Assembly (NCBI RefSeq): GCF_022747945.1
Contig: NZ_JALDST010000001.1
Span: forward strand, 4,774,001 to 4,838,000
Source: Micromonospora sp. R77
Lineage (GTDB): Bacteria; Actinomycetota; Actinomycetes; Mycobacteriales; Micromonosporaceae
Direction: 5' to 3'
Length of the DNA stretch: 64,000 bases
The position numbers and the translations under genes were made by a program. Of this stretch, positions 25,509 through 50,539 are shown piece by piece; position 1 is the stretch's first letter, and each line of letters begins with the position of its first letter. The notes beneath the pieces were generated by a model, which was not told where the DNA came from, did no database searches, and saw nothing but the letters and a program-made list of their open reading frames with translations.

Positions 25509-27215
25509 TCAGGCGGTGGGGGAGAGGTCCCGCTCGGCGCTGCCCGGGGCGCGCGGGGTCGGCGGGTTCCACTCCGGTTCCAGCTCCCGCCGGGCGGCGT
25601 CGAGGAAACCGTCGGCGTACGCCTCGGCCGGGAAGTCGCCCAGGTAACGCCGACGGGTCTCCCACCGCGCCGACGCCAGCGGATCGGTGTCCAGCAGCCG
25701 GGTCAGCACGTCGTCGACGTTCGACATGTCCCGCCGCAGCACGTAGCCGGTGCCGGCGAGCGGGAACCGGGCCACGAAGTCGTCCCCGTCCACGCCGGTG
25801 TCGGTCACCGCGTACGGCTTGCCGGAGTAGAGGTAGTCGGAGATGACGCCCGACACGTCGGAGATCAGCGCGTCGGAGCGGTTCACGCAGTCGGTGAGGG
25901 ACAACTCCCGGGCCGCCGCCGCGCCCCACAGGTGCGCCCGGCCGGTCTTCGCCCGGTCCGCGGCGAGCAGCTCGGTGAGGCGGGCCAGCTGCCGCGCCGA
26001 CGCCGGGTTCTGCGAGGTGTACGGGTGGGCCCGCAGGATCACCGTGGCGCCGCGCGCCAGCAGCCGGCGGACCACCGTCTCGGCGACCGGCAGCGAGCAG
26101 TAGTTCGCGTCGGCGTTGTGCCCGGTCCAGGTGGGGGTGTAGAGCACGGTCGGGTGGGCGAGCCCGGGGGTGGGCTGCCGGCGTACCTCGATCGACTCCA
26201 CCTGGGGGCGGCCGACCACGACGAACTTCTCGGCGGGGATCTCCACGCCCGCGCGGGCGTACCGCTCGACGGCGGCCGGCCCGGCCACGAAGATCCGGTC
26301 GAAGATCGCCGAGACCGGGTTGGCGCTGGGCGCCTTGTCGCTGTCGCCGTGGTGCAGCTGCACGTGGGTGAGCTGGGAGAAGCGGATGCAGTGGCTGTTC
26401 TTCGCGCCGTGGTTGACGTAGAACGCCACCCGCAGGCTCGGCACCAGCGCCTCGTCGAGGGTCTTGATGGTGGGGCAGAAGAGCACCGGGGCGCGGGTGG
26501 CGGCGGCGACGGTCGGCAGGAACTCCGGCTCGCGCAGCACCACCAGGAACGGCCGGCCGAGCCGTTCCAGGTAGGGCAGCCACATGGTGACCTGGTATTC
26601 CGACCCGGGCGGGGCGGAGAAGTAGAGCACGAACTCGGGCTGGTGGCGGCGCAGCGCGCGACCCACCGGCCCGCCACCGGCCGGCGGCCGGAACCGCCGC
26701 CGGGCCAGGTCCAGGCCGACCGCCGCGCAGCCGGCCCCGACCAGCAGCGCGGCGACCAGCGCGACCCAGGCGGGCAGCACCAGGGCGGCGGCGACCGCGA
26801 CGAGACCGAGCAGCACCAGCAGCGCGTCGCCGAGCCGCTCGGCGACCAGCGGGGTCCAGGTGCGGACCGGCAGGTTGGCGGCCCGCAGCTCCAGCGCGCC
26901 CGCCTGGCGCAGCGGCCCGACCAGCAGCACCAGGCCGAGCAGGACCAGCGCGGTGGCGGCCAGCGCCGGGTCGAAGCCGTCGTCGAGCCGGCGGGCGTAG
27001 CCGACCAGGATGCCCGCCGCGACCAGGACCGACTCGGCCACGCCGTCGGCGCCCGGCCGGATCCGGCGTTCCACGGCGGCGGCGGCGAGGGCGGCCACCG
27101 CGATCGCCAGCCCCCACCCGGTCGCCCCGGTGAGGGCCAGCACGAGGAACGCCAGCACCGCCAGCCCGGTGGTCAGCACCCGGGCGAGCAGCTTCCGGAC
27201 CAGGTCACCACGCAT
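25509..27215 (-). CDS. TagF-like CDP-glycerol/CDP-ribitol glycerophosphotransferase with N-terminal membrane domain
   Basis: TagF-type enzymes polymerise or prime poly(polyol-phosphate) teichoic acids from CDP-glycerol or CDP-ribitol. The C-terminal 400 residues show the family pattern: the HGDSDKAPSANPVSAIFDRI region, VVVGRPQVESIE, VLYTPTWTGHNADANYCSLP, ILRAHPYTSQNPASAR and SDALISDVSGVISDYLYSGK. Unlike soluble TagF, the first 165 residues hold about five membrane segments. It ends the minus-strand operon begun by the CDP-ribitol synthase, 30 bases downstream of it. A paralog lies at 48193-49941. The polyol cannot be read from sequence; the upstream enzyme favours ribitol. Confidence 0.85.
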   Translation of the reverse strand: MRGDLVRKLLARVLTTGLAVLAFLVLALTGATGWGLAIAVAALAAAAVERRIRPGADGVAESVLVAAGILVGYARRLDDGFDPALAATALVLLGLVLLVGPLRQAGALELRAANLPVRTWTPLVAERLGDALLVLLGLVAVAAALVLPAWVALVAALLVGAGCAAVGLDLARRRFRPPAGGGPVGRALRRHQPEFVLYFSAPPGSEYQVTMWLPYLERLGRPFLVVLREPEFLPTVAAATRAPVLFCPTIKTLDEALVPSLRVAFYVNHGAKNSHCIRFSQLTHVQLHHGDSDKAPSANPVSAIFDRIFVAGPAAVERYARAGVEIPAEKFVVVGRPQVESIEVRRQPTPGLAHPTVLYTPTWTGHNADANYCSLPVAETVVRRLLARGATVILRAHPYTSQNPASARQLARLTELLAADRAKTGRAHLWGAAAARELSLTDCVNRSDALISDVSGVISDYLYSGKPYAVTDTGVDGDDFVARFPLAGTGYVLRRDMSNVDDVLTRLLDTDPLASARWETRRRYLGDFPAEAYADGFLDAARRELEPEWNPPTPRAPGSAERDLSPTA

Positions 27216-27245
27216 GTCGGTCGTCCGTTCCGGTGCTCGGGTGGG

Positions 27246-28778
27246 TCAGGCGTCCACGTCGGCGGGCAGCTCCGACGCGGGCGCGCCGGGCTGGGCCGGA
27301 ACCGCCGCGACCGGCGCGGCGGGCACCGCGGCGACCTGCTCACCGCCGGGGTCCCGGCGTACGTCGATGACCTGGCCGGTCAGGTCGGAGATGAGCACGT
27401 CCAGCGACGCCTGGGCGACCGCCTCGGAGGAGAGCAGCGTGCCCTCCGGCTCCTCGCCGAACGCCTTCGTCCGCATCGGGGTGGCGGTGCGCTCCGGGTT
27501 GACGCAGTTGACCCGTACGCCGAACTCCGCCCACTCGTCGGCGAGCGCCTGGGTCAGGTTGACCAGCGCGGCCTTGGTGGCGGAATAGAGCGCGTAGCGG
27601 GCCCGGCCCCGGGTGTAGGAGCTGGAGGTGTAGAGCAGCAGCTGCCCCTTGGTCTGCTGGAGGTAGGGCAGCGACTGCCGGGCGATCGTCACCGGGCCGA
27701 CGAAGTTGACGTGCAGGAGCCGGTCCATGGTCTCCTCGTCCATCTCCGCGAGGGCCCCCTTCTCCAGGATGCCGGCGGTGACCACGACATGGTCGATCCG
27801 GCCGGTGGCCTCGAAGGCGGTCTTCAGCGCGGCCGACACGTCCTCGGCCCGCTCGACGTGGGTGCCGGTGCTGGAGCGGCTGAACGGGAAGACCTGCGCG
27901 CCGTGCCGGCGGGCCAGTTCGGTGAGGTCGTGGCCGATGCCGTAGCTGCCGCCGAAGACCACGATGGTCCGGCCGGTGAGCTCCTCGGCGTAGCCGTGGT
28001 TGGTCAGCCGGGGGGCCTGCGCCGCGGCGAGCTGGAAGAGCTTGTCCGCCAGGTGCACGTCGACCGGGTGGGTGACCTTGATGTTCTCGTCGGAGCCGTC
28101 GATCACCTTGATCGGCGTGCCGGGCAGGTAGCGCAGCACCACGCCGCAGTCGTCGGTGGCGGCGAAGTCCGGGTCGCCCGCGGCCCGCCGGTACGCCTCC
28201 CGGATGGTGCCGGAGCGGAACGCCTGCGGGGTCTGGCCCCGGCGCAGCGTCGAGCGGACCGGGATGTCGGTGATGCACTCGTCGGCGTCGACCTGGATGA
28301 TCGTGTCGGCGGACGGGATCGCCACGTCGACCGCCGAGTAGGTCCAGAGCGCGTTCACGCACTCCCGGACGATCCGGGCGCTGACCAGGGGCCGGACCGC
28401 GTCGTGGAAGAGGATGTTGACGTCGCCCTCGCCGACCGCGTCCAGCGCGATCCGGGTGGTGGCGTTGCGGGTGTCCCCGCCCTCGATCACCCGGGTCACC
28501 TTGCGGAAGCCGGCGTTCGCCACGATCCGCTGCGCGTCGGCGACGTGCCCGGTGGCCATCAGCACGATGATCTCGTCGATCTCCGGCGCGGCCTCGAACA
28601 CGGCCAGGGTGTGCTCGATGATCGGCTTACCGGCGATCTTCAGCAGCTGCTTGGGGATGCCCAGCCCTAGCCGGGTCCCGGTGCCCCCCGCGAGGATCAC
28701 GGCCACCGTACGCGAGGGGCGCCAGGGTGCCGGGCTCGCCGGCGCGGCGTCCGGTGCGGTGGTGCGGTCCTGCGTCAT
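27246..28778 (-). CDS. Fused D-ribitol-5-phosphate cytidylyltransferase and ribulose-5-phosphate reductase (Bcs1/TarI-TarJ-like)
   Basis: The N-terminal domain (residues 20-250) is an IspD/TarI nucleotidyltransferase: VAVILAGGTGTRLGLGIPKQ, FHDAVRPLVSARIV and HPVDVHLADKLF. The C-terminal domain (about 265-480) is a short-chain dehydrogenase with VVFGGSYGIGHDLTELARRH, the Ser and Tyr-x3-Lys of YTSSSYTRGRARYALYSATK, and VNCVNPERTATPM. This order matches Haemophilus Bcs1, which makes CDP-ribitol from ribulose 5-phosphate in two steps. A plain IspD role in isoprenoid synthesis is unlikely because of the fused reductase and the TagF neighbour. The gene is preceded by a PhoP-type box. The last 40 residues are an Ala/Pro tail. 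Confidence 0.85.
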   Translation of the reverse strand: MTQDRTTAPDAAPASPAPWRPSRTVAVILAGGTGTRLGLGIPKQLLKIAGKPIIEHTLAVFEAAPEIDEIIVLMATGHVADAQRIVANAGFRKVTRVIEGGDTRNATTRIALDAVGEGDVNILFHDAVRPLVSARIVRECVNALWTYSAVDVAIPSADTIIQVDADECITDIPVRSTLRRGQTPQAFRSGTIREAYRRAAGDPDFAATDDCGVVLRYLPGTPIKVIDGSDENIKVTHPVDVHLADKLFQLAAAQAPRLTNHGYAEELTGRTIVVFGGSYGIGHDLTELARRHGAQVFPFSRSSTGTHVERAEDVSAALKTAFEATGRIDHVVVTAGILEKGALAEMDEETMDRLLHVNFVGPVTIARQSLPYLQQTKGQLLLYTSSSYTRGRARYALYSATKAALVNLTQALADEWAEFGVRVNCVNPERTATPMRTKAFGEEPEGTLLSSEAVAQASLDVLISDLTGQVIDVRRDPGGEQVAAVPAAPVAAVPAQPGAPASELPADVDA

Positions 28779-28806
28779 TGCCGTTCCTCACTTCTGCGGG
28801 GGGTGG

Positions 28807-28839
28807 TGGGGTTTACGCCTGGATGACCGGCTGGTGAAC
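28807..28839 (-). promoter_or_regulatory. Putative PhoP-binding PHO box
   Basis: On the minus strand, 29 bases before the CDP-ribitol synthase start, lie contiguous 11-base direct repeats: GTTCACCAGCC (28839-28829), GGTCATCCAGG (28828-28818) and a degenerate CGTAAACCCCA (28817-28807). The second unit fits the Streptomyces PhoP consensus G-G/T-TCA-YYY-R-G/C-G at every position and the first at all but one or two. The phase and tandem layout are those of an operator core. Confidence 0.7.
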
Positions 28840-28871
28840 TTTCGCCGGCAACCTGAAAACCTTAACGCGTA

Positions 28872-28916
28872 CGGCGGAGCGCACCGACCGGGCGACCCGG
28901 CCGGTGCGCTCCGCCG
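28872..28916 (-). terminator. Hairpin terminator after the exporter ATPase gene
   Basis: A 15-base-pair stem (28872-28886 with 28902-28916) begins two bases after the TAG of the ABC ATPase. It separates the exporter operon from the CDP-ribitol/TagF operon, implying that the latter has its own promoter beside the PHO box. Confidence 0.75.
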
Positions 28917-28918
28917 TG

Positions 28919-29719
28919 CTACTTCTGGTTCTCGTACGCGTCGCAGACCTCTTCGGTGGGGCCGTCCATCTTCAGCACGCCGCTCTCCAGCCAGATGGTG
29001 CGCTCGCAGGTGTCCCGGATCGAGCCGATCGAGTGGCTGACCAGGAAGACGGTGCCGGCGCTGTCGCGCAGCTCCCGGACCCGCTGCTCGCTGCGGACCC
29101 GGAACTTGCGGTCGCCGGTGGCGAGGGCCTCGTCGATCAGCAGGACGTCGTGCTTCTTCGCCGAGGAGATGGCGAAGCGCAGCCGGGCGCCCATGCCGGA
29201 GGAGTAGGTGCGCATCGGCAGCGAGGCGAAGTCGCCGCGCTCGTTGATCCCGGAGAACTCGATGATCTCCGGGGCGATCCGCTTGACCTCCTCGGGCGGC
29301 ATGCCCATGGCCAGGCAGCCGAGCACCACGTTACGCTCGCCGGAGAGGTCGTTGAGCAGGGCCGCGTTCACGCCGAGCAGCGACGGCTGGCCCATCGTGT
29401 AGACCGCGCCGCGGGCCGGGGGGAGCAGGCCGGCGATGGCCCGCAGCAGGGTCGACTTGCCGGAGCCGTTGCTGCCGATCAGCCCGATGGCCTCACCCTG
29501 GTACGCGGTGAAGCTCACGCCCTTGACCGCGTGCACCTCGCGGATGTTCGGCGCGCTGGTGCGGGAGACGATGCGCTTGAGGGCGGAGACCGGGGTCGTG
29601 CCGCCGGTGGCGCCCTTGTGGATCTTGTAGATCACGTGCACGTCGTCCACCACGACGGTGGGGATCCGGGCCTGGTCCGTCCCGACGGCGTCGCTCGTCA
29701 ACTGGGTCTGGTCAGCCAC
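28919..29719 (-). CDS. tagH: Teichoic-acid/polysaccharide ABC exporter ATPase (TagH/Wzt type)
   Basis: ATPase of the two-gene exporter that flips lipid-linked glycopolymer across the membrane. The start GTG 29719 follows AAGGAGTAC and overlaps the permease end by 8 bases; in-frame upstream codons are read-through. The protein has Walker A IGSNGSGKSTLLRA (residues 81-94), the signature RTYSSGMGARLRFAI, Walker B DVLLIDEALATGD and the switch LVSHSIGSI. The D-E-A-L-A-T-G-D form and the spacing after strand one are typical of the TagH/RfbB/Wzt subfamily. It lacks a long C-terminal carbohydrate-binding domain, as in the short actinobacterial members. Confidence 0.9.
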   Translation of the reverse strand: MADQTQLTSDAVGTDQARIPTVVVDDVHVIYKIHKGATGGTTPVSALKRIVSRTSAPNIREVHAVKGVSFTAYQGEAIGLIGSNGSGKSTLLRAIAGLLPPARGAVYTMGQPSLLGVNAALLNDLSGERNVVLGCLAMGMPPEEVKRIAPEIIEFSGINERGDFASLPMRTYSSGMGARLRFAISSAKKHDVLLIDEALATGDRKFRVRSEQRVRELRDSAGTVFLVSHSIGSIRDTCERTIWLESGVLKMDGPTEEVCDAYENQK

Positions 29720-30614
29720 GGCCGTACTCCTTCTCTCCGCGCCAGAAGTAGACGAAACCACCGACGCCCATCACCAGCGCCCAGGCCACCGCCATCACCC
29801 ACAACCGGGTCGGTGTCGAGACCAGATTGGTCTGGTTGGACTCCAGCAGCGCGTAGCGGGCCAGCTCGATGAAGATCAGCGGCGGGTTCGCCTCCAGCAG
29901 GGTGGCGGCCCAGTGCGGCAGGTGCTCCCGGAACAGCGCCACCGGGTAGAGCACGCCGGAGGCGTACAGCCAGGTCCGCATCACGAACGGCATGACCTGC
30001 TTGAGGTCGGTGATCTTGGAGCCGAGCCGGGCCATCACCATGGTCAACCCGATGTTGAAGATCGTCTGGAGCAGCAGCATGGGCGCGATCAACAGCCAGC
30101 GGAAGGTCAGCGGCTCGCCGGTCAGCAGCACGATGACCGCGAGCACCACCATCGACATGAGCAGCTGCTGGAGCTGCACCAGGGTGACGGTGATCGGCAG
30201 CGCCGCCCGGGGGAACTGGAGGGCCCGGATCAGGCCCAGGTTGCCGGTGATCGCGCTGGTGCCGTTCTGCACCGCGGTCTGGGTGAACATGAAGATGAAC
30301 ACACCGGTGCAGAGGTACGCGATGAAGTTCGACGTGTTGCGGTGGGACGAGACGATCACACCGAAGACCAGGTAGTAGACCGCCGCGTTGGTCAGCGGGG
30401 TCAGCACCTGCCAGAGCTGCCCGAGCTGTGTCTGGCTGAGCGACGAGGCGACCTTCGCCCGCGAGTACGCGGTCATGAAGTGTCGGTACGCCCACAGCTT
30501 GCGGGTGTATTCGGCCAGGGGTGGGCGTTCCCCGGCGACCCGCAGCCCGTACCGCTGCGCGAGCTGGGCCTGGGTCAGCCCGGAGTCGGGGTCGGCCACC
30601 GCGGTGTTGGCCAT
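29712..30614 (-). CDS. tagG: Teichoic-acid/polysaccharide ABC exporter permease (TagG/Wzm type)
   Basis: A 300-residue ABC-2 membrane subunit with six predicted spans. The start is set at ATG 30614 (MANTAVADPDSGLTQAQLAQ); the open frame runs further into the promoter, but that part crosses the -10 element. Family features are YSRAKVASSLSQTQLGQLWQ before the first span, NTSNFIAYLCTGVFIFMFTQ, and IRALQFPRAALPITVTLVQL. It is the first gene of the exporter operon, transcribed from a promoter overlapped by a palindrome and divergent from a TetR gene. Export of the locus product is the obvious role. Confidence 0.9.
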   Translation of the reverse strand: MANTAVADPDSGLTQAQLAQRYGLRVAGERPPLAEYTRKLWAYRHFMTAYSRAKVASSLSQTQLGQLWQVLTPLTNAAVYYLVFGVIVSSHRNTSNFIAYLCTGVFIFMFTQTAVQNGTSAITGNLGLIRALQFPRAALPITVTLVQLQQLLMSMVVLAVIVLLTGEPLTFRWLLIAPMLLLQTIFNIGLTMVMARLGSKITDLKQVMPFVMRTWLYASGVLYPVALFREHLPHWAATLLEANPPLIFIELARYALLESNQTNLVSTPTRLWVMAVAWALVMGVGGFVYFWRGEKEYGRG

Positions 30615-30722
30615 GGTCAGGTGCTCCGATCTTTCGTGCCGATGGGGAGCAGTGGAAGGAAGGGTGTCGCAGCGATGAAATCTAGCCTGCCGGGGTCCTG
30701 CCGCCGCCTCGCCGCTGCGTGG

Positions 30723-31520: not shown

Positions 31521-31577
31521 CCCCCCTCGGAAGCCGGAAACCCCCCAATGAGCACTTTGTCGACAGGAGGAAGCCCC

Positions 31578-32687
31578 ATGGCTGGGCCGCACTCAGAGTT
31601 CATCCCCCCAGCGCGACCGATCATCGGTGAGGCCGAGATCGAAGCGGCTGTCCGGGTGCTGCGGAGCGGCCGGGTCGTACAGGGCCCGGAGGTCGCGGCG
31701 TTCGAGGAGGAGTTCGGCGAGCTGGTCGACGGCCGGCACTGCGTCGCCGTCAACTCCGGCACCTCGGCCCTCCAGCTCACCCTGATGGCGCTCGGCCTCG
31801 GCCCGGGTGACGAGGTCATCGTGCCCTCGTTCTCCTTCGCCGCCAGCGGCAACGCCGTCCGGCTGGTCGGTGCCGAGCCGGTCTTCGTGGACATCGAGCC
31901 GGGCACCTTCTGCGTCGACCCGGAGGCGGTCGCCGCCGCGATCACGCCGAAGACCGCCGCCATCATGCCGGTGCACCTCTACGGCCACCCGGCCGCGATG
32001 GACCGGATCATGGCCATCGCGCAGCAGCACGGCCTGGCCGTCGTCGAGGACGCCGCGCAGGCGCACGGCGCCGCGCTGCACGGCACCCCGGTCGGCGCCT
32101 TCGGCACCGCCGGCTGCTTCAGCTTCTATCCGACGAAGAACATGCACTCCCTCGAGGGCGGCATGATCACCACCGGGGACGCCGGGCTCGCCCGCACCCT
32201 GCGGCTGCTGCGCAACCAGGGCATGGAGCAGCGGTACGCGAACGAGATCGTCGGCGCGAACATGCGGATGACCGACGTGGCCGCCGCCATCGGCCGGGTC
32301 CAGCTGCGCCAGCTCGGCGAGTGGACCGAGCAGCGCCGGGCCAACGCCAAGTTCCTCGACTCCGCCATCACCGGCATGGTCACCCCGCCGGTGGCCGACG
32401 GCGCCCGGCACGTCTACCACCAGTACACGGTGCGGGTGACGGCCGACCGCGATGCCGCCCAGGCCCGCCTCACCGAGCTGGGCATCGGCAACGCCGTCTA
32501 CTACCCGACCCCGATCCACCGGCTCAAGCCCTACCTGGACGCGAACGGCCAGCCCGGCCCCTGGCACCTGCCGGAGACCGAGAAGGCCGCCGCCGAGGTG
32601 GTCTCGCTGCCGGTGCACCCGTCGCTCAGCCAGTCCGACCTGGAGCGGATCGCCGACGGCGCCAACCTCGCGGGCGGTGCCCGATGA
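31578..32687 (+). CDS. wbpE: DegT/DnrJ/EryC1/StrS sugar aminotransferase, WbpE-like
   Basis: PLP-dependent enzyme that aminates a keto nucleotide-sugar. The start ATG 31578 is fixed by AGGAGG; an earlier ATG at 31548 lacks a site. The 369-residue protein has NSGTSALQLTLMALGLGPGD, Asp158 in VVEDAAQAHGA that pairs with the PLP nitrogen, and Lys187 in SFYPTKNMHSLEGGMI that forms the Schiff base. With the adjacent Gfo/Idh oxidoreductase it matches WbpE-WbpB, which together make the 3-amino derivative of UDP-GlcNAc-uronic acid. Pairing with WbpA-, WbpD- and WbpI-class genes elsewhere in the locus supports this over other deoxyamino-sugar routes. Confidence 0.85.
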   Translation: MAGPHSEFIPPARPIIGEAEIEAAVRVLRSGRVVQGPEVAAFEEEFGELVDGRHCVAVNSGTSALQLTLMALGLGPGDEVIVPSFSFAASGNAVRLVGAEPVFVDIEPGTFCVDPEAVAAAITPKTAAIMPVHLYGHPAAMDRIMAIAQQHGLAVVEDAAQAHGAALHGTPVGAFGTAGCFSFYPTKNMHSLEGGMITTGDAGLARTLRLLRNQGMEQRYANEIVGANMRMTDVAAAIGRVQLRQLGEWTEQRRANAKFLDSAITGMVTPPVADGARHVYHQYTVRVTADRDAAQARLTELGIGNAVYYPTPIHRLKPYLDANGQPGPWHLPETEKAAAEVVSLPVHPSLSQSDLERIADGANLAGGAR

Positions 32688-43548: not shown

Positions 43549-45165
43549 ATGGGATCTGACGGCACGACCGCAACGGCGACCCGGGGACGGGTCGTCATGC
43601 TGGTGGACAACGGGGTCATCGGTGACTCCAGGGTGCAGAAGGCCGCCCGGTCCGCGGCCGAGGCCGGCTGGGACGTGGTCCTGCTCGGGCGGGCGCCGGT
43701 CGGGCAGCCGCAGAGCTGGCGGCTCGGTGCCGCCGAGGTCCGCCTGATCCCGATGGCCGAGCCGCTGGCGAAGCGCCGGCACGAGTTCCGGCGGGCCTGG
43801 CTGCGCCGACCGCTGGCCTACCCGCCCACCGGCATCGCGGCGCAGCGTACCCAGGCGGTGAAGGCGTGGCGGGCCGACCTGCGGGTCCGGCGGGACGCCC
43901 TGACCACGGCCGCCCGCGAGGCCGGCGCGGGCCGCCCGGGTGGCCTGCCCTGGGGTGCCCTGCGGGCCGAGGAGAAGCTGGCCGGCCTGACCCGCCGGTG
44001 GGTGGGCTTCCGCAACCGGCAGCTCACCGCCGCCCGGAAGGGCCGCAAGCTGGACGGCCCGTGGGACCGGGCGTACACGATGTTCTGGCAGAAGCTGCGG
44101 GGCGACGGCGCCTGGCGGCGGCTGGAGCCGGGACTCTGGGACTACGAGCTGGCCTACGGCCCGGTCGTCGACGAGTTGGCGCCGGACCTGATCCACGCCA
44201 ACGACTTCCGGATGATCGGGGTCGGCGCCCGCGCCAAGATCCGGGCCGCCGCGAAGGGCCGCCGGATCGCCCTGGTGTGGGACGCCCACGAATACCTGCC
44301 GGGCGTGCAGCCGTGGCGCGACAACGCCCGCTGGCTGCCCGGGAACGTGGCCCACGAGCGGGAGTACGTGCCCTACGCGGACGCCACCATGACCGTCTCG
44401 GGTGGGCTGGCCGACCTGCTCCAGCGCGAGCACCGGCTGGCGGAACGCCCCGCGGTGGTGCTCAACGCCCCCACGGTGGGTGAGCTGCCGGCCGACCCGG
44501 CGGAGCCGGTGCCGGACATCCGCGCGCTGTGCGGGCTGCGACCGGAGACCCCGCTGCTGGTCTACAGCGGGGTGGCCGCGGCCAAGCGGGGGCTCGGCGT
44601 GCTGGTCGAGGCGCTGCCCCGGCTGCCGGAGGCGCACGTCGCGCTGGTGGTCAACAAGCCCACCTCGGCGTACGTGAAGAGCCTGGTCGCCCGGGCCGGG
44701 GAGCTGGGCGTCGCGGAGCGGCTGCACCTGCTGCCGTACGTGCCGCACCACCAGGTGGTGCGGTTCCTCTCCGGCGCGCAGGTCGGCGTCATCCCGATCC
44801 AGCACTGGCCCAACCACGAGATCGCGCTGATCACCAAGTTCTTCGAGTATTCACACGCCCGCCTGCCGCTGGTCGTCTCCGACGTGCGGACGATGGCCGA
44901 CACTGTCCGGGAGACCGGGCAGGGCGAGGTGTTCACCGCCGAGGATGTGGCGGACTTCGTCCGGGCGGTCAGCGCGGTGCTCGCCGACCCGGCGCGCTAC
45001 CGCGCCGCGTACGACCGGCCGGGGCTGCTGGCCGGCTGGACCTGGGAGGCGCAGGCGCAGGTGCTGGACGAGGTCTACGCCCGGCTGCTGCCGGACGCCC
45101 CGCCCCGGCCCGCCGTCGAGCCCGCGCCCGGCGCCGCCCCGACCTCGGTGGCGGTGGGGGCGTGA
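43549..45165 (+). CDS. Glycosyltransferase family 4, paralog B
   Basis: A 538-residue GT-B enzyme homologous over its whole length to 35461-37095: opening GRVVMLVDNGVIGDSRVQKA, central PDLIHANDFRMIGVGARAKI and LVWDAHEYLPGVQ, donor loop GVIPIQHWPNHEIALITKFF and EYSHARLPLVVSDVRTMAD. The two differ most in the basic insert (residues 90-190), a likely acceptor-recognition region. The start is ATG 43549, preceded by GGCAGGA; a TAGACT -10-like element lies at 43495-43500. The end overlaps the GT2 start (GTGA), so both are co-translated. Substrate unknown. Confidence 0.85.
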   Translation: MGSDGTTATATRGRVVMLVDNGVIGDSRVQKAARSAAEAGWDVVLLGRAPVGQPQSWRLGAAEVRLIPMAEPLAKRRHEFRRAWLRRPLAYPPTGIAAQRTQAVKAWRADLRVRRDALTTAAREAGAGRPGGLPWGALRAEEKLAGLTRRWVGFRNRQLTAARKGRKLDGPWDRAYTMFWQKLRGDGAWRRLEPGLWDYELAYGPVVDELAPDLIHANDFRMIGVGARAKIRAAAKGRRIALVWDAHEYLPGVQPWRDNARWLPGNVAHEREYVPYADATMTVSGGLADLLQREHRLAERPAVVLNAPTVGELPADPAEPVPDIRALCGLRPETPLLVYSGVAAAKRGLGVLVEALPRLPEAHVALVVNKPTSAYVKSLVARAGELGVAERLHLLPYVPHHQVVRFLSGAQVGVIPIQHWPNHEIALITKFFEYSHARLPLVVSDVRTMADTVRETGQGEVFTAEDVADFVRAVSAVLADPARYRAAYDRPGLLAGWTWEAQAQVLDEVYARLLPDAPPRPAVEPAPGAAPTSVAVGA

Positions 45166-46727
45166 GCCAGCCGGACGTGACGGTGGTCGTCGCCGTCTAC
45201 AACACCATGCCCTACCTGACCCGGTGCCTGGACTCGCTGGTCGGGCAGACCATCGGCCGGGACCGGCTGGAGGTCGTCGCGGTCGACGACGGCTCCACCG
45301 ACGGCAGCGGCGCCGAGCTGGACCGGTACGCCGAGCGGTACCCGGAGACGGTCAGGGTGCTGCACCAGGCCAACTCGGGTGGGCCGGCCGCCCCCAGCAA
45401 CCTCGCCCTGGACCACGCCCGCGGCCGGTACGTCTTCTTCATCGGCTCCGACGACCACCTCGGCCCGGAGGCGCTGGAGCGCCTGGTGGACGCCGCCGAC
45501 CGGTGGGAGTCCGACGTGGTGCTGGGCCGGATGATCGGCACCAACAAGCGCTACGTGCACCAGGCCGTCTATGCCAGCACGTCTGAGCGGGTCGACCTGT
45601 TCGACAGCGACCTGCCCTGGTCGCTGTCGAACACCAAGCTGTTCCGCCGGGACCTGATCGAGCGGTACGGCCTGCGGTTCCGCACCGACATGGCGATGGG
45701 CAGCGACCAGCCGTTCACCCTGGAGGCCTGTTACCGGGCGCGGAAGGTCTCCGTCCTCGCCGACTACGAGTTCTACTACGCGGTCAAGCGGGACAACGCG
45801 CAGAACATCACCTACGCGAGCCGATTCGAGGAGCGGCTGCGCTGCGCGGAGGAGCTGGTCGGCTTCGTCGTCGGGCTGATCGAGCCGGGCCCGCGCCGGG
45901 ACGCGGTCCTGCTGCGCCACTTCAGCTGGGAGGTGGCGAAGCTCCTGCGGCCCGAGTTCCTCACCCTCGCCCCGGACGTCCAGCAGCACGTCCACGACCG
46001 GGTCCGCAAGCTGACCGAGGCGTACCTCACCGACGGCATCATCGCCCGGATGGCGGCCGACCTGCGGCTGCGGCTGGTCGTCGCCCGCGACGCGGACTTG
46101 GACCGGCTGCGTGAGCTGATCGCCCAGCAGGACGCGGCGCTGCCGGAGGTCACCGTCTCCGGTGACCGCTGGTACGCCCACTACGTCGGCTTCCGCGACC
46201 CCGCCCTGGGCTATCCGGACGAGTGGTACGACGTGACCGAGAAGGCCGCGAAGGTCCTGGTCAAGCTGACCGCGACGCGGCTGGGCTGGGGGCGGGACAG
46301 CACCGGCGCCCTTGCGCTGACGGTCACCGCGCAGAGCCCCCGGCCGGAGCTGGCCGAGCTGACCGCCGCGGCGGTCCGGGTCAGCGTCGGTGAGTTGACG
46401 GGTGTGACGTCGGTCGCGCCGGGCGGGCCCGGTACCGTCGTACGGACGGACTTCACGGTGGACCGGCTCCTCGCGGTCGTCGCGGCGAACGGGGAGCGTC
46501 GGGTGGTACGGGTCGAGGTGACCGCGCTGGGCGCGACCGCCTCGGCCCCGCTCCGCACGGGCCGCCGCGTCGCCGCACCGCGCCGGCTGGCCCGGCACGG
46601 TGTCCGGTTCCACCTCGTGACGCCCACGACCAACCACAAGGGCCAGGTGATCGTCGCGATCACGCCGGTGACCCCGCGTCGGCTCCTCGCCCGCCTGCGC
46701 CGAATCTGGCCCTCCGGAGGAAAGTAG
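45162..46727 (+). CDS. Glycosyltransferase family 2, TarS/TarP-like
   Basis: A 521-residue enzyme from GTG 45162. The GT-A domain reads VTVVVAVYNTMPYLTRCLDS, VVAVDDGSTDGSGAELDRYA, ANSGGPAAPSNLALDHARGR and FFIGSDDHLGPEALERLV. The SGGP-x3-SN phrase followed by Y-x-FF-x-G-D-D is what wall-teichoic-acid glycosyltransferases of the TarS/TarP kind show. Residues 340-520 form a beta-rich C-terminal part resembling the trimerisation or carbohydrate-binding regions of TarS, but this is weak. In a locus with CDP-ribitol and TagF-like genes, decoration of the polyol-phosphate chain is the most likely role. Confidence 0.8.
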   Translation: MSQPDVTVVVAVYNTMPYLTRCLDSLVGQTIGRDRLEVVAVDDGSTDGSGAELDRYAERYPETVRVLHQANSGGPAAPSNLALDHARGRYVFFIGSDDHLGPEALERLVDAADRWESDVVLGRMIGTNKRYVHQAVYASTSERVDLFDSDLPWSLSNTKLFRRDLIERYGLRFRTDMAMGSDQPFTLEACYRARKVSVLADYEFYYAVKRDNAQNITYASRFEERLRCAEELVGFVVGLIEPGPRRDAVLLRHFSWEVAKLLRPEFLTLAPDVQQHVHDRVRKLTEAYLTDGIIARMAADLRLRLVVARDADLDRLRELIAQQDAALPEVTVSGDRWYAHYVGFRDPALGYPDEWYDVTEKAAKVLVKLTATRLGWGRDSTGALALTVTAQSPRPELAELTAAAVRVSVGELTGVTSVAPGGPGTVVRTDFTVDRLLAVVAANGERRVVRVEVTALGATASAPLRTGRRVAAPRRLARHGVRFHLVTPTTNHKGQVIVAITPVTPRRLLARLRRIWPSGGK

Positions 46728-46731
46728 TTTC

Positions 46732-48015
46732 ATGAACATCTGCGTCGTCGCGCTCGGCAAGATCGGTCTCCCGCTCGCCGTGCAGTTCGCCTCGAAGGGG
46801 CACCGGGTGATCGGTGCCGACGTCTCCGAGCGGGTCGTCGAGCTGGTCAACGACGGTGCCGTCCCGTTCCCGGGCGAGGCCGACCTGGACGTCAAGCTGA
46901 AGGAGGCGGTGGCCGCCGGGCTGCTCTCGGCCACCACCGACACGGCGGCGGCGGTCGCCGAGTCCGAGGCCGTCGTCGTGGTCGTCCCGCTCTTTGTGGA
47001 CGCCGAGGGGGTGCCGGACTTCGGCTGGATGGACGACGCCACCCGGTCCATCGCCGCCGGCCTCAAGCCGGGCACCCTGGTCAGCTACGAGACCACCCTG
47101 CCGGTCGGCACCACCCGCAGCCGCTGGGCGCCGATGCTGGAGCAGGGCTCCGGCCTGGCCGCCGGTAAGGACTTCCACCTGGTCTTCAGCCCCGAGCGGG
47201 TGCTCACCGGCCGGGTCTTCGCCGACCTGCGCCGCTACCCGAAGCTGGTCGGCGGCATCGACGAGGCGTCGGCCGAGCACGGCGTGCGTTTCTACGAGGC
47301 GGTGCTGGACTTCGACGAGCGCCCCGACCTGAACCGCCCGAACGGGGTCTGGGACCTGGGTTCGGCCGAGGCGTCGGAGCTGGCGAAGCTCGCCGAGACC
47401 ACCTACCGGGACGTCAACATCGGGCTGGCGAACCAGTTCGCCCGGTTCGCCGACACCGTGGGCGTCGACGTCACCAAGGTGATCGAGGCGTGCAACACCC
47501 AGCCGTACAGCCACATCCACTCGCCGGGCATCGCGGTCGGCGGGCACTGCATCCCGATCTACCCGCGGATGTACCTGTGGAACGACCCGGCCGCCACGGT
47601 CGTCCGGTCGGCCCGCGAGGCCAACGCCGCCATGCCGGACTACGCCGTCGACCTGCTCGCCGCCGCGTACGGCGACCTGACCGACGTGGGCGTGCTGGTG
47701 CTCGGTGCCGCCTACCGGGGCGGGGTGAAGGAGACCGCCTTCTCGGGCGTCTTCCCGACCGTCGCGGCGCTGCGCGCCCGGGGCGCCAAGCCGTACGTCT
47801 CGGACCCGATGTACACCAACGAGGAGCTGGTCGCGCACGGCCTGCCCGGCTACGACGGCGAGCCGATCGGCGCCGCGGTGATCCAGGCCGACCACGCCGA
47901 GTACCGTACCCTCGCCCCGGCCGACCTGCCGGGCGTGACGGTGCTGGTCGACGGCCGCCGGGTCACCGACCCGGCCCGCTGGACCGGCGTCCGCCGGGTC
48001 GTCATCGGCGGCTGA
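46732..48015 (+). CDS. UDP-sugar 6-dehydrogenase, WbpA/WecC-like
   Basis: NAD-dependent four-electron oxidation of UDP-GlcNAc or UDP-ManNAc to the uronic acid. The 427-residue protein begins at ATG 46732 after GGAGGAAAG. It has VVALGKIGLPLAVQFASKGH, ETTLPVGTTRSRWAPMLEQ, the catalytic Cys273 in GIAVGGHCIPIYPRMY, the general acid/base Lys in SEASELAKLAETTYRDVNI, and GAAYRGGVKETAFSG in the C-terminal domain. The IPIYP ending of the active site marks the N-acetylhexosamine group (WecC/WbpA) rather than UDP-glucose dehydrogenase. It supplies the acidic sugar route whose later steps lie at 31.6-33.7, 40.7 and 50 kb. Third gene after the GT4/GT2 pair. Confidence 0.9.
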   Translation: MNICVVALGKIGLPLAVQFASKGHRVIGADVSERVVELVNDGAVPFPGEADLDVKLKEAVAAGLLSATTDTAAAVAESEAVVVVVPLFVDAEGVPDFGWMDDATRSIAAGLKPGTLVSYETTLPVGTTRSRWAPMLEQGSGLAAGKDFHLVFSPERVLTGRVFADLRRYPKLVGGIDEASAEHGVRFYEAVLDFDERPDLNRPNGVWDLGSAEASELAKLAETTYRDVNIGLANQFARFADTVGVDVTKVIEACNTQPYSHIHSPGIAVGGHCIPIYPRMYLWNDPAATVVRSAREANAAMPDYAVDLLAAAYGDLTDVGVLVLGAAYRGGVKETAFSGVFPTVAALRARGAKPYVSDPMYTNEELVAHGLPGYDGEPIGAAVIQADHAEYRTLAPADLPGVTVLVDGRRVTDPARWTGVRRVVIGG

Positions 48016-48027
48016 GCACCGCCCCGT

Positions 48028-48063
48028 CAGTGGGCCCCGACCGGTCACGGTCGGGGCCCACTG
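48028..48063 (+). terminator. Hairpin terminator after the UDP-sugar dehydrogenase gene
   Basis: A perfect 16-base-pair stem (48028-48043 with 48048-48063) and a GTCA loop begin 13 bases after the stop codon. Confidence 0.75.
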
Positions 48064-48192
48064 CCTGTGCCCTACCCCGGTGAGCAGCGTCGTTTCCCGG
48101 TCACCGGCCCGACGCGCCGGCAATACTCGGGTCAGGCGCCCCGTCCGGGGTCGCAGCTCGCCGGCGTGGTGGGCGGGACAGGGGGCGTTCCG

Positions 48193-49941
48193 GTGTTCGG
48201 CAGGGTCCGCAGCCGGCCGGGTGTCGCCACGGCCGGCGTGGTGCTGCTCGGCTACGGGCTCATGGTCCTGACCGGGGCCCTCGGTCGGGCGGTCCCGTTC
48301 GCGGTCGCCGCCGCCGTGGTCGTCGCCGGTGAGCTGGCGCTGGCCACCCGCTTCGCGGCCACCGGCACGTTGCTGCGCAAGGCCGGCCTCGGGCTGGTCT
48401 GGCGGCGGTCGGTCCGCGACCTCGCCGTCGTCCTGCTGGTCGTCAGCGCGGTCCGTCCCCCGGTGGCCGGGACCGTCGCGGTCCTGCTGCTGCCGGCCGC
48501 GTTGTGGGCCGTGGCGGTTGGCACCACCGCGCTGGGCCGGCTCACCGACCGGCGGGCCGCCACCCCGGCGTACACCCGCAACATCGACCTCGGCGCGCTG
48601 CGCCGGGTGCCCGCGCCGCCGGCCTGGGCCCGGCGTCTCGCCGGCCTGCGGCTGCCGCTGCTCAACGTGCTGCTGGTGCCGGCGGCGGTGCTGGCCGCGC
48701 TGGTCGACCGGGTCGCCCCGGTGGTGGTGACCGGGCTGGTCACGCTCGCCGCCGGGCTGGTCGTCGCGGCGGCGCTGGCGGTGGGCTGGTGGCGCGGGCG
48801 GGGCCGGAGCCCGGGCGTGCCGGCCGCCGTGCACGACTGGCTGGCCCGGGAGCGCCCCGAGGTGGCGCTCTACTTCGCCGGCCCGGCGAAGGACGTCTAC
48901 CAGGCCGACATGTGGCTCGGCCCGGTCGCGGCGGCCGGCCGCCGCGCGGTGGTGCTGCTCCGGGACGCCGACGCGTTCCGCGAGCTGGCCGAGACCCGGC
49001 TGCCGGTGATCTGCGTACCGGCCGGCGTCGACGTCATGAACCTCGACCTGAGCCGGCTGCGGGTGGCGCTCTACGTGGCGAACGTCGGCGCGAACATCCA
49101 CCTGCTGCGCCAGCCGGGCGTGCGGCACGTCTTCGTCGGGCACGGTGACAGCGACAAGCAGGCCAGCGTCAACCCCTACAGCAAGGTGTACGACGAGGTG
49201 TGGGTGGCCGGACCGGCCGGTCGGGAACGGTACGCCCGCGCTCGCGTGGGCGTCCTCGACCGGGACATCGTGGAGATCGGCCGGCCGCAGCTCGCCGGGG
49301 TGCACGCGTTCGGCGCGGAGCACGGCGCGCGCCCGTTCACCGTGCTCTACGCCCCCACCTGGGAGGGGTGGCTCGCCGACGACCCGTACCACACCTCGCT
49401 GGTGCTGATGGGGGAGCGGATCGTCGCCGGCCTGCTGGACGCCGGCGGGGTACGGGTGGTCTACAAGCCGCACCCGCTGACCGGCACCCGGTCGGGGCGG
49501 GCCCGCGCGGTGCACGAGCGGATCGTCGCCCGGCTCCGTGCCGCGGGCGGGGAGACCGACGCGCACGCGCTGGACGGCACCGCGCACCTGGTGGTGACCG
49601 GCCGTACGCCCGCCCTGTTCGACTGCTTCAACGTCACGGACCTGCTGGTCAGCGACGTGTCCAGCGTCGTGTCGGACTTCCTGCAGAGCCAACGCCCGTA
49701 CGTGGTGGCGAACCCGGCGGACCTGCCGGCGGACGAGTTCCGCCGACGGTTCCCGACCGCGCGGGCGGCGTACCTGCTCTCCGCCGACTGCGCGGAGCTG
49801 CCAAAGATCCTCACCGTCACCCGGGCCGGCGACGACCCGCTGACCGGGGCCCGGCGGGAGCTGCGGGAATACCTGCTCGGCCCGGCCGGGACGAACCCGA
49901 TGGACCGGTTCCGCGCCGAGCTCGACCGGCTCTGCCGCTGA
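48193..49941 (+). CDS. TagF-like polyol-phosphate polymerase with N-terminal membrane domain, paralog
   Basis: The start at GTG 48193 follows ACAGGGGG. The frame is open to 48067, but that segment overlies the terminator and lacks a site. The 582-residue protein has about six membrane segments in residues 1-195, then a CDP-glycerol/ribitol phosphotransferase domain: FVGHGDSDKQASVNPYSKVY, VAGPAGRERYARARV, VLYAPTWEGWLADDPYHTSL, YKPHPLTGTRSGRAR, and LLVSDVSSVVSDFLQSQRPY. It is homologous to 25509-27215 in both the membrane anchor and the catalytic part. One may be the primase and the other the polymerase; sequence does not say which. Confidence 0.85.
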   Translation: MFGRVRSRPGVATAGVVLLGYGLMVLTGALGRAVPFAVAAAVVVAGELALATRFAATGTLLRKAGLGLVWRRSVRDLAVVLLVVSAVRPPVAGTVAVLLLPAALWAVAVGTTALGRLTDRRAATPAYTRNIDLGALRRVPAPPAWARRLAGLRLPLLNVLLVPAAVLAALVDRVAPVVVTGLVTLAAGLVVAAALAVGWWRGRGRSPGVPAAVHDWLARERPEVALYFAGPAKDVYQADMWLGPVAAAGRRAVVLLRDADAFRELAETRLPVICVPAGVDVMNLDLSRLRVALYVANVGANIHLLRQPGVRHVFVGHGDSDKQASVNPYSKVYDEVWVAGPAGRERYARARVGVLDRDIVEIGRPQLAGVHAFGAEHGARPFTVLYAPTWEGWLADDPYHTSLVLMGERIVAGLLDAGGVRVVYKPHPLTGTRSGRARAVHERIVARLRAAGGETDAHALDGTAHLVVTGRTPALFDCFNVTDLLVSDVSSVVSDFLQSQRPYVVANPADLPADEFRRRFPTARAAYLLSADCAELPKILTVTRAGDDPLTGARRELREYLLGPAGTNPMDRFRAELDRLCR

Positions 49942-49955
49942 GCGGGGTACCTGCC

Positions 49956-49990
49956 GACGGGGGCGACGACCGCCGGCCGTCGCCCCCGTC
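49956..49990. terminator. Bidirectional hairpin between the TagF paralog and the N-acetyltransferase gene
   Basis: A perfect 13-base-pair stem (49956-49968 with 49978-49990) lies between convergent stops at 49941 and 49997. Confidence 0.7.
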
Positions 49991-49996
49991 GCCGGC

Positions 49997-50539
49997 TCAG
50001 CCCCGGTGCGGCGGGTTGTCGACGTCGCGGGAGACGACCTCGCCCTTCTCGTCGACCCAGCCCTTCGGCCGGGCCGGGTTCCCGGCCACCAGCTGGTACG
50101 GCTGCACGTCCTTCGTCACCACCGAACCGGCGGCGATCATCGCGTACTCGCCGACGGTGATGCCGCAGACCAGGGTGGCGTTCGCGCCGATCGAGGCGCC
50201 CCGGCGGACCAGGGTCGGGGTGATCGTCCAGTCCGGGTTCTGGGCGCGCGGACGGAAGTCGTTGGTGAAGACCGCGCAGGGACCGACGAAGACCTCGTCC
50301 TCGATGGTCACGCCCTGGTAGACGGAGACGTTGTTCTGGATCTTGACGAGGTCGCCGACGCTGACGCCCGCGTCGACGTACACGTTGCGCCCGATGACGC
50401 AGCCGGCGCCGATCCGGGCCGAGGACCGGACGTGGGCCAGGTGCCAGACCTTGGTGCCGTCGCCGACCTGGGCGCCGGACTCCACGTCGGCCGTCGGGTG
50501 CACGAAGACCGAGGGGGACCGGTCGTTGCTGTCAGTCAT
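49997..50539 (-). CDS. wbpD: Hexapeptide-repeat sugar N-acetyltransferase, WbpD/WlbB-like
   Basis: A 180-residue left-handed beta-helix acetyltransferase from ATG 50539. It shows VHPTADVESGAQVGDGTKVW, HLAHVRSSARIGAGCVIGRN, VKIQNNVSVYQGVTIEDEVF, GPCAVFTNDFRPRAQ, RRGASIGANATLVCGITVGE and GSVVTKDVQPYQLVAGNPAR. The phrases KIQNNVSVY, VFTND-x-RP and RRGASIGANATL are characteristic of WbpD/WlbB, which acetylates the 3-amino group of UDP-GlcNAc3N-uronic acid made by the WbpE-type enzyme. The catalytic residues cannot be named with certainty without an alignment. Monocistronic; completes the diacetamido-uronic acid set. Confidence 0.9.
   Translation of the reverse strand: MTDSNDRSPSVFVHPTADVESGAQVGDGTKVWHLAHVRSSARIGAGCVIGRNVYVDAGVSVGDLVKIQNNVSVYQGVTIEDEVFVGPCAVFTNDFRPRAQNPDWTITPTLVRRGASIGANATLVCGITVGEYAMIAAGSVVTKDVQPYQLVAGNPARPKGWVDEKGEVVSRDVDNPPHRG

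What the first reader, a model, noticed from the sequence alone, without database searches (positions are those of the whole stretch)
25509..50539. A 25-kb actinobacterial cell-wall glycopolymer locus combining CDP-ribitol/TagF machinery with a diacetamido-uronic acid route
Within one contiguous block are a fused CDP-ribitol synthase, two membrane-anchored TagF-like polymerases, a TagGH exporter, a TarS-like GT2, five or more other glycosyltransferases, a PIG-V-like GT-C enzyme, and a full set of enzyme classes for an acidic diacetamido nucleotide sugar. The combination predicts a polymer that is part teichoic acid and part teichuronic-like. I do not know of a described polymer that joins these two routes in this lineage, so the product structure is the open question.
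Basis: partly seen in the sequence, partly recalled or inferred. Interest (0 to 1): 0.8.

Follow-up and report, generated by a model that had tools for sequence, protein, structure and literature searches.

The report
Micromonospora hybrid wall-polymer gene cassette
This stretch of a Micromonospora genome most likely builds a hybrid cell-wall polymer, a ribitol-phosphate chain carrying a side chain rich in an unusual acidic sugar, of a kind reported in 2025 in Streptomyces, and in Micromonospora it sits in a slot where species carry different sugar-making modules.

Summary
Window 25509-50539 carries a fused CDP-ribitol synthase (TarIJ), two membrane-anchored TagF-like enzymes, TagGH, a TarS-like GT2, five GT4 enzymes, a hydrophobic protein (PIG-V label unconfirmed) and all five enzyme classes for UDP-ManNAc3NAcA. 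The genome is Micromonospora. The predicted hybrid now has a precedent: PMC13274773 (Cell, December 2025) reports that Streptomyces griseus and S. antibioticus carry a ManNAc3NAcA/GlcNAc3NAcA teichuronic-like polymer on ribitol-phosphate wall teichoic acid, made by utr genes near TagF-TarIJ. Streptomyces-like loci fetched here hold relatives of the window's TarIJ, UtrA, B, C, D, J (46-86% identity) and, in one, the 2-epimerase. Best reading: the Micromonospora counterpart. Added here: the utr-like module is one of three alternatives beside the same TagF1-TarIJ-TagGH-TetR flank (80 loci: 32 with UtrA-UtrB; 32 without, 31 of these with a DUF6077-type membrane protein; 12 with a third sugar module; 4 undetermined); the 2-epimerase is optional (28 of 44 genomes with UtrC near TarIJ), predicting manno and gluco variants; and a PF00953 search found only what looks like MraY, no TagO. 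Chemistry is untested. Verdict: new variant of a known kind.

The parts
25509..27215 (-). TagF1: membrane-anchored TagF/TarL-like polyol-phosphate transferase, probable poly(ribitol-phosphate) polymerase or primer enzyme
   Evidence: PF04464 33.8 bits; H289-G-x-S-D-K, H397-P, S452-D-x-S invariant in 27 aligned sequences; AF2 model pLDDT 86.3 with N-terminal helices; first Foldseek match TagF 3l7m, E 8.9e-8, TM 0.40/0.52; TarL with CDP-ribitol at rank 18
27246..28778 (-). TarIJ: fused ribitol-5-phosphate cytidylyltransferase and short-chain reductase, CDP-ribitol synthase
   Evidence: Of the 25 NCBIfam models shown it passes only the D-ribitol-5-phosphate cytidylyltransferase one (168.6 vs 166 bits) and narrowly misses ispD (178.9 vs 181.3); best PDB match ribitol-5-phosphate cytidylyltransferase 4jis; a stronger PF01128 (IspD) match lies elsewhere at G000:C1:2388242; 63-66% to Streptomyces-like TarIJ
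28919..29761 (-). TagH-like ABC exporter ATPase (start uncertain)
   Evidence: Best NCBIfam match TagH 174.7 bits, below its cut-off of 320; Walker A present
29712..30614 (-). TagG-like ABC exporter permease
   Evidence: PF01061 45.9 bits
30863..31414 (+). TetR-type regulator at the border between the teichoic flank and the variable slot (start uncertain)
   Evidence: PF16859 98.1 bits; at this border in 20 of 21 full loci
31548..32687 (+). UtrA/WbpE-like sugar 3-aminotransferase
   Evidence: PF01041 402.8 bits; best PDB match is a scyllo-inositol transaminase (3.4e-91), WbpE follows at 1.3e-71; 77-78% to Streptomyces-like copies; lysine in FYPTK
32684..33709 (+). UtrB/WbpB-like 3-dehydrogenase
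   Evidence: PF01408 69.2 bits; best NCBIfam match UDP-GlcNAc 3-dehydrogenase, 206 of 450 bits needed; 73-75% to Streptomyces-like copies; WbpB in PDB only at 1.6e-5, other oxidoreductases rank higher
33706..35403 (+). GT4-29, variable glycosyltransferase
   Evidence: PF13692 34.1 bits; in 11 of 21 full loci
35461..37095 (+). GT4-30, paralogue of GT4-35, variable
   Evidence: PF13439/PF13692 over cut-off; in 10 of 21 full loci
37163..39286 (-). GT4-31, candidate chain-extending glycosyltransferase (UtrF/UtrG role inferred from position)
   Evidence: PF13692 28.8 bits; 51-56% to Streptomyces-like copies; in 16 of 21 loci
39283..40641 (-). GT4-32, candidate chain-extending glycosyltransferase (UtrF/UtrG role inferred from position)
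   Evidence: Below Pfam cut-offs (PF13439 27.4 of 28.5); 64-73% to Streptomyces-like copies; in 17 of 21 loci
40730..41815 (-). UtrH/WbpI: UDP-GlcNAc3NAcA 2-epimerase
   Evidence: Best PDB match UDP-diNAcGlcA 2-epimerase 8sxv 7e-103 against 8.7e-73 for the best UDP-GlcNAc 2-epimerase; it also passes the general wecB cut-off; W304 and Y93 match two of three specificity residues, L16 does not
42121..43302 (-). Hydrophobic protein, possibly a GT-C transferase (by eye); PIG-V label not confirmed
   Evidence: No Pfam match at 0.001, Alg9-type E 0.88; in 13 of 21 loci
43549..45165 (+). GT4-35, glycosyltransferase next to UtrC
   Evidence: PF00534 49.6 bits; 59-62% to the gene beside UtrC, or beside UtrD and UtrC, in three Streptomyces-like loci
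45162..46727 (+). UtrC: TarS-like GT2, predicted to attach the first acidic sugar to ribitol phosphate
   Evidence: TarS_linker PF22181 47.5 bits; profile best PDB match TarS 3.4e-54; first 46 Foldseek rows are TarS, RmlT and TarP; D182 invariant in 15
46732..48015 (+). UtrD/WbpA-like UDP-sugar 6-dehydrogenase
   Evidence: TIGR03026 276 bits, over cut-off; Cys in GGHC; best PDB match an annotated UDP-ManNAcA dehydrogenase 4r16; 83-86% in three Streptomyces-like loci, 76% in a fourth
48067..49941 (+). TagF2: second membrane-anchored TagF-like enzyme, usual far border of the slot (start uncertain)
   Evidence: PF04464 30.8 bits; 48-49% to the Streptomyces-like TagF beside TarIJ; same motifs; found in 16 of 21 full loci
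49997..50539 (-). UtrJ/WbpD-like 3-N-acetyltransferase
   Evidence: Best PDB match 3mqg, named lipopolysaccharide biosynthesis acetyltransferase, 3.6e-49; 21 of 21 full loci; 46-48% to Streptomyces-like copies

Best explanation
The region is a Micromonospora wall-teichoic-acid locus with a utr-like teichuronic module between its TetR and TagF2 flanks. Inferred steps: (1) TarIJ makes CDP-ribitol and TagF1/TagF2 polymerise ribitol phosphate on a lipid-linked primer. (2) UDP-GlcNAc is converted by UtrD, UtrB, UtrA and UtrJ to UDP-GlcNAc3NAcA, and by the 2-epimerase to UDP-ManNAc3NAcA. (3) The TarS-like UtrC places the first GlcNAc3NAcA on a ribitol phosphate, and the GT4 enzymes extend a side chain holding ManNAc3NAcA and another sugar; the window has no cassette-borne 4-epimerase, so the second sugar need not be the GalNAc of S. 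griseus. (4) TagGH exports the hybrid and an LCP-family protein attaches it to peptidoglycan. Shown here: gene content, homology to Streptomyces-like loci, fold matches, co-location and its variation. Reported by others in Streptomyces: the hybrid itself and the need for utrC.
For: Relatives of TarIJ, UtrA, B, C, D, J, GT4 enzymes and, in one genome, the 2-epimerase lie together in three Streptomyces-like genomes; Obg, L27 and RNase E were confirmed beside them in one and L21 in another, matching the L21/L27 anchors given for S. griseus. The first 46 structural matches of the UtrC model are TarS, RmlT and TarP. TarIJ passes the ribitol-5-phosphate cytidylyltransferase cut-off and the genome has another, stronger IspD match. 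The 2-epimerase is closest to the characterised UDP-GlcNAc3NAcA enzyme. UtrA, B, C, D and J are in 21 of 21 full loci, which were chosen for UtrC or for UtrA-UtrB. 44 of 49 genomes with UtrC have it within 25 kb of TarIJ. A TagA-family gene and six LCP-family matches lie elsewhere in the genome.
Against: No chemistry. A PF00953 search found only what looks like MraY, so how the lipid primer starts is open; three PF02397 transferases are candidates. One of three specificity residues of the 2-epimerase is of the UDP-GlcNAc type. PF04464 matches only part of the TagF proteins, and the fold match is shared with other GT-B enzymes at equal Z. Of the five UtrC models one has pLDDT 83.9 and four 66.6-69.0. 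No L21/L27 was recognised beside the window's locus in the Pfam scans. The paper says the complexity of the spectra prevented showing the direct TUA-WTA link by NMR in S. griseus, so even there it rests on co-behaviour and dephosphorylation. The second TagGH/TagF-fusion locus at C1:3.29 Mb could serve part of the wall polymer.
Confidence: 0.75

Rival explanations
1. The two gene sets make two separate polymers: a ribitol teichoic acid and an independent teichuronic acid or capsule anchored on its own, neighbours only because both are surface loci.
For: In M. deserti (L034) utr-like sugar genes lie on the other side of TagF1, and 32 of 80 loci keep the teichoic flank without UtrA-UtrB. [quoted passage not shown]
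Against: The TarS/RmlT/TarP-like UtrC points to ribitol phosphate as acceptor; no gene of the cassette was recognised as a flippase or Wzy-type polymerase in the Pfam scans; in Streptomyces joint behaviour in size exclusion and DOSY, and size loss on dephosphorylation, were reported.
Confidence: 0.15
2. The TagF/TarIJ part makes a polyol-phosphate other than ribitol (glycerol or another alditol), decorated by the acidic sugar.
For: TagF1/TagF2 are only partial PF04464 matches; the IspD half nearly reaches the ispD cut-off (178.9 of 181.3 bits). The S. griseus polymer also held a terminal glycerol phosphate.
Against: Of the models shown only the ribitol-5-phosphate cytidylyltransferase cut-off is passed; the SDR fusion fits reduction of ribulose phosphate (general knowledge); the fold neighbours of UtrC include complexes with ribitol phosphate.
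Confidence: 0.07
3. The acidic sugar serves an exopolysaccharide or glycoprotein and not the wall.
For: ManNAc3NAcA is also found in O-antigens of Gram-negative bacteria (abstract of PMC10622841).
Against: Close neighbourhood of UtrC with TarIJ in 44 of 49 genomes and the Streptomyces precedent.
Confidence: 0.03

Closest known systems
Streptomyces griseus / S. antibioticus utr locus and TUA-WTA hybrid polymer (PMC13274773)
   Same: UtrA, UtrB, UtrC, UtrD, UtrJ, TarIJ and TagF classes, 46-86% identical in fetched Streptomyces-like loci; 2-epimerase present in some and absent in others; variable glycosyltransferases
   Different: Different genus and gene order; flanked by TagF1-TarIJ-TagGH-TetR and TagF2, not by L21/L27 and RNase E; TagGH beside TarIJ (no TagG/TagH match in the three fetched Streptomyces-like 40-kb stretches); two TagF-like proteins; no 4-epimerase and no acyltransferase between the flanks in the window; the same slot holds other modules in other species. 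The S. griseus sequences themselves were not compared.
Pseudomonas aeruginosa Wbp pathway for UDP-ManNAc3NAcA
   Same: All five enzyme classes (dehydrogenase, oxidoreductase, aminotransferase, N-acetyltransferase, 2-epimerase)
   Different: Product goes to lipopolysaccharide there, predicted wall polymer here
Staphylococcus aureus TarS / Listeria RmlT
   Same: GT2 domain and further C-terminal parts; best structural matches
   Different: From general knowledge those add GlcNAc or rhamnose as single residues; UtrC is predicted to start a polymer with GlcNAc3NAcA
Bacillus subtilis tua teichuronic acid operon
   Same: Acidic wall polysaccharide with a UDP-sugar dehydrogenase
   Different: TuaD and TuaG models score far below cut-off (74.5 of 700 and 58.4 of 400 bits); UDP-glucuronate route there (general knowledge)

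Membership tests
utr TUA-WTA hybrid locus (Streptomyces) | TarS-like UtrC homologue | tested here: met
   46-56% to Streptomyces-like copies, TarS_linker, invariant D182
utr TUA-WTA hybrid locus (Streptomyces) | Enzymes UtrA, UtrB, UtrD, UtrJ for UDP-GlcNAc3NAcA | tested here: met
   Relatives at 73-86% (A, B, D) and 46-48% (J) in three Streptomyces-like loci
utr TUA-WTA hybrid locus (Streptomyces) | Neighbouring TarIJ and TagF of wall teichoic acid synthesis | tested here: met
utr TUA-WTA hybrid locus (Streptomyces) | Acidic glycan joined to ribitol-phosphate WTA, lost on utrC deletion | not testable with these tools
   Needs wall chemistry and a mutant
CDP-ribitol synthase (TarI+TarJ activity) | Ribitol-5-phosphate cytidylyltransferase domain | tested here: met
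   NF001183 168.6 bits over 166; best PDB match 4jis
CDP-ribitol synthase (TarI+TarJ activity) | Reductase producing ribitol 5-phosphate | tested here: inconclusive
   SDR domain with YxxxK; substrate not testable
UDP-GlcNAc3NAcA 2-epimerase (WbpI type) | Closer to the characterised enzyme than to UDP-GlcNAc 2-epimerases | tested here: met
   7e-103 vs 8.7e-73
UDP-GlcNAc3NAcA 2-epimerase (WbpI type) | Trp307, Tyr96, Ala18 of the Thermus enzyme | tested here: inconclusive
   Trp and Tyr present, Leu in place of Ala, in all 11 sequences aligned
TagF/TarL polyol-phosphate polymerase | GT-B fold and conserved motif residues | tested here: met
   Model and Foldseek; motifs invariant in 27 sequences (that these are the TagF motifs is recalled); fold shared with other GT-B enzymes
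TagF/TarL polyol-phosphate polymerase | Full-length PF04464 domain | tested here: inconclusive
   Over cut-off but only profile positions about 191-293 match
PIG-V (GT-C) family, for 42121-43302 | Pfam PIG-V match | tested here: inconclusive
   No PIG-V match listed up to E 5; HMMER filters drop weak matches

The most novel reading that the evidence does not exclude
In Micromonospora the ribitol wall-teichoic-acid locus is a serotype-like exchange slot: beside a nearly constant TagF1-TarIJ-TagGH-TetR flank, and usually before TagF2, species carry either a utr-like acidic-sugar module, a single DUF6077-type membrane protein, or a third aminosugar module, and within the first kind gain or loss of the 2-epimerase switches the polymer between manno and gluco diacetamido-uronic acid. 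The surface polymer would then be a swappable identity tag, plausibly selected by lectin-guided toxins or phages, built on a teichoic chain started without TagO.
Probability: 0.45. Interest if true: 0.65.

Novelty: new variant of a known kind. Interest (0 to 1): 0.5.

Why it matters
Hybrid teichuronic-teichoic polymers were reported in Streptomyces as receptors for antibacterial umbrella toxins. Finding the related module in Micromonospora and Salinispora (and at least its UtrA-UtrB part in Plantactinospora), in a slot that other modules also occupy, extends that surface chemistry to another family of antibiotic producers and gives direct genetic predictions: which species make manno or gluco forms, and which make none. 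It also raises a testable gap, since the genome search found no TagO-family starter enzyme besides the presumed MraY.

Tried and rejected
PIG-V label for 42121-43302: no support. Housekeeping IspD in place of TarI: disfavoured because the genome has a stronger IspD match elsewhere and the ispD cut-offs are missed, one of them narrowly. Umbrella-toxin ALF repeats in the same genome: no match, but the control rang nowhere, so absence is not shown. TagO: one PF00953 match only, and it is MraY by its neighbours (FtsW-like and MurF-like frames, my reading of the sequences). Plasmid search for UtrC: 8 of 72,556 records, 36-41% identical over 56-69% of the query, so no close plasmid copy. In the VIA-align list other GT-B enzymes tie with TagF, so the fold alone does not prove TagF function. 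That the GT4-31/GT4-32 sequence types track the 2-epimerase is only loosely supported: all five loci with GT4-31 at 82% or more have the epimerase, but low-identity types occur with it (four loci) and without it (seven). Paper searches. One search listed one unrelated paper; one search matched 235 papers and listed 20, among which PMC6113628 names Micromonosporaceae and teichoic acid and was not read. Only PMC13274773 (sections 8, 9, 10, 45 and passages) and PMC10622841 (abstract start and passages) were read. I therefore do not claim that nothing is in print on Micromonospora wall polymers.

Selection to keep in mind: the 80 loci are the best 80 of 139 confirmed places, so near relatives dominate. 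In the tree (short search, SH-aLRT only) 68 of 80 loci were used; two without a TarIJ gene call (L011, L062) and ten labelled undetermined were left out, seven of which one search shows to carry the third module. The 21 full loci were chosen for UtrC or for UtrA-UtrB; G390 was fetched but not used because its contig length equals that of G418 (M. fulviviridis). The genome searches scored a capped number of candidates per genome. Gene calls are from a home-made codon model, so some starts are uncertain, and several 'absent' TagF1 entries are cut by the end of the fetched stretch.
Full report
What is there. The window lies at G000:C1:4774001-4838000 of a 7.14 Mb genome. The fused IspD-SDR protein is 81-95% identical in the Micromonospora records listed, so this is taken to be Micromonospora. 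Several frames overlap by four bases (UtrA-UtrB, UtrB-GT4-29, GT4-32/GT4-31, GT4-35/UtrC), which fits co-translated operons.

Teichoic side. Of the 25 NCBIfam models shown, TarIJ passes only the ribitol-5-phosphate cytidylyltransferase one and narrowly misses ispD; its best PDB match is a ribitol-5-phosphate cytidylyltransferase, and a stronger IspD match lies elsewhere in the genome. TagF1 and TagF2 match PF04464 over cut-off but only in part. In 27 aligned sequences, including both, the H-G-x-S-D-K, H-P and S-D-x-S residues are invariant. The TagF1 model (pLDDT 86.3) has N-terminal helices followed by a GT-B fold whose first Foldseek match is TagF (E 8.9e-8, TM 0.40/0.52), though other GT-B enzymes tie on Z. 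TagG and TagH look like ABC exporter parts; the TagH model is the best NCBIfam match but below cut-off.

Acidic-sugar side. All five Wbp classes are present. The 2-epimerase matches the characterised UDP-GlcNAc3NAcA enzyme at 7e-103 against 8.7e-73 for the best UDP-GlcNAc enzyme. Of three residues that PMC10622841 (passages read) names as adapting the enzyme to the bulkier substrate, Trp307 and Tyr96 are kept (W304, Y93) and Ala18 is Leu16, in all 11 sequences aligned. The hexapeptide protein's best PDB match is 3mqg, named lipopolysaccharide biosynthesis acetyltransferase; that this is a WbpD-type enzyme is recalled. The aminotransferase is closer to a scyllo-inositol transaminase than to WbpE in the PDB, and the oxidoreductase matches WbpB only weakly, so these two rest on class, company and the Streptomyces-like relatives.

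The joining enzyme. The GT2 at 45162-46727 has a TarS linker domain; its family profile finds TarS first (3.4e-54). The best of five models (pLDDT 83.9; the other four 66.6-69.0) has TarS, RmlT and TarP in the first 46 Foldseek rows, enzymes that decorate poly(ribitol phosphate). D182 is invariant in 15 sequences and probably corresponds to the UtrC D181 whose change to Asn abolished toxin sensitivity in S. griseus; the S. griseus sequence itself was not aligned.

Known precedent. PMC13274773 (sections 8, 9, 10 and 45 read) reports in S. griseus a GalNAc-ManNAc3NAcA polymer and in S. antibioticus a GlcNAc3NAcA polymer on ribitol-phosphate WTA, requiring utrC, with genes near TagF (SGR_4957), TarIJ (SGR_4956) and L21/L27; it also says that the direct TUA-WTA link could not be shown by NMR in S. 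griseus. S. antibioticus lacks utrE, utrF and utrH. Their proteins are 63-66% (TarIJ), 77-78% (UtrA), 73-75% (UtrB), 83-86% (UtrD), 46-56% (UtrC) and 46-48% (UtrJ) identical to the window's; the 2-epimerase is 76% in G182. That these are Streptomyces is inferred from this arrangement. In 296 genomes drawn across the phylum, the window's genome and seven of eleven of that one genus reached E 1e-80 for UtrC; in three of the seven (G123, G172, G275) the match is 42-44% over about 360-385 residues, probably a second TarS-like enzyme, and the one other Micromonospora in the sample (G192) reached only 3.3e-45.

Distribution in the genus. In 121 Micromonospora genomes TarIJ is found in 113 at 1e-100, the UtrC-like GT2 at 1e-80 in 49 and the 2-epimerase in 33. 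44 of 49 UtrC and 32 of 33 epimerase hits lie within 25 kb of TarIJ; the UtrC exceptions are G317 and G363 (other contigs), G393 (72 kb), and G307 and G321, which have only a diverged copy; the epimerase exception is G307. Of the 44, 28 have the epimerase and 16 do not.

The slot. In 80 named loci: 32 carry UtrA and UtrB relatives above 80%; 32 do not, of which 31 have a protein 42-100% identical to the M. lupini protein that Pfam calls DUF6077, beside TetR or next to it but for a WbpD-like gene; 12 carry a third module beside TetR that begins with a 391-398-residue protein, an aminotransferase 34-36% identical to UtrA and a 310- or 311-residue protein, which by eye look like an oxidoreductase and an NAD-epimerase; 4 are undetermined. 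WbpD-like genes stand without UtrA-UtrB in L043 and L061, as if left over. In M. deserti (L034, counted among the 32) utr-like genes lie beyond TagF1 while the slot holds the DUF6077-type gene. On a TarIJ tree of 68 loci the utr label needs 7 changes (3 forced by starred branches) against 22.9 in shuffles: mostly inherited, with repeated loss or exchange. The three Plantactinospora loci carry UtrA-UtrB too.

Inside the module. In 21 full loci UtrA, B, C, D, J are in 21 of 21, while GT4-29 is in 11, GT4-30 in 10, GT4-31 in 16, GT4-32 in 17, the 2-epimerase in 11, the hydrophobic protein in 13, GT4-35 in 14 and TagF2 in 16. Two Salinispora, M. endolithica and G330 share an epimerase-family gene beside UtrB, a possible UtrE (Pfam run on the S. 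cortesiana one); G346, C31 and G404 share an acyltransferase, a possible UtrI (Pfam run on that of G346). The window has neither between its flanks.

Gaps. A TagA-family gene and six LCP-family matches exist, but the only PF00953 match is MraY by its neighbours; three PF02397 transferases are possible starters. The genome also has a second TagGH-like pair with a CDP-alcohol transferase and a GT2-TagF fusion (L128). The product structure in Micromonospora is therefore predicted, not shown.

Noticed in passing
window 3-8486: Cytidylyltransferase-like gene cut by the window start, SIS-domain protein, two GT4, a GT2 and a carbamoyltransferase: looks like another glycan cluster, possibly with heptose (a guess).
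   Followed up: no
L126:8233-11437 (G000:C1 near 70-73 kb): Second copy of the GT4-35 + UtrC pair away from the main locus (UtrC 52-53% identical; the GT4-35-like gene came out as two calls); similar second copies in many relatives.
   Followed up: partly
L128:5882-11576 (G000:C1 near 3.29 Mb): Second TagG/TagH-like pair with a CDP-alcohol transferase/DUF5941 protein and a GT2-TagF fusion with full-length PF04464.
   Followed up: partly
G000 whole genome: PF00953 search finds one match, apparently MraY, so no TagO/WecA-type starter was found although TagA and LCP families are present.
   Followed up: partly
L034, beyond TagF1 (11541-13265); epimerase at 15693-16781: M. deserti has UtrJ-, UtrD-, epimerase-, UtrB- and UtrA-like genes on the far side of TagF1 with a DUF6077-type gene in the usual slot.
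   Followed up: no
L056:3385-7259: Third module in 12 of 80 loci: oxidoreductase-like, aminotransferase, epimerase-like and GT4-like genes; product unknown.
   Followed up: partly
window 54715-54807: A tRNA-Ala (agc) call overlaps a low-scoring gene call and is doubtful.
   Followed up: no
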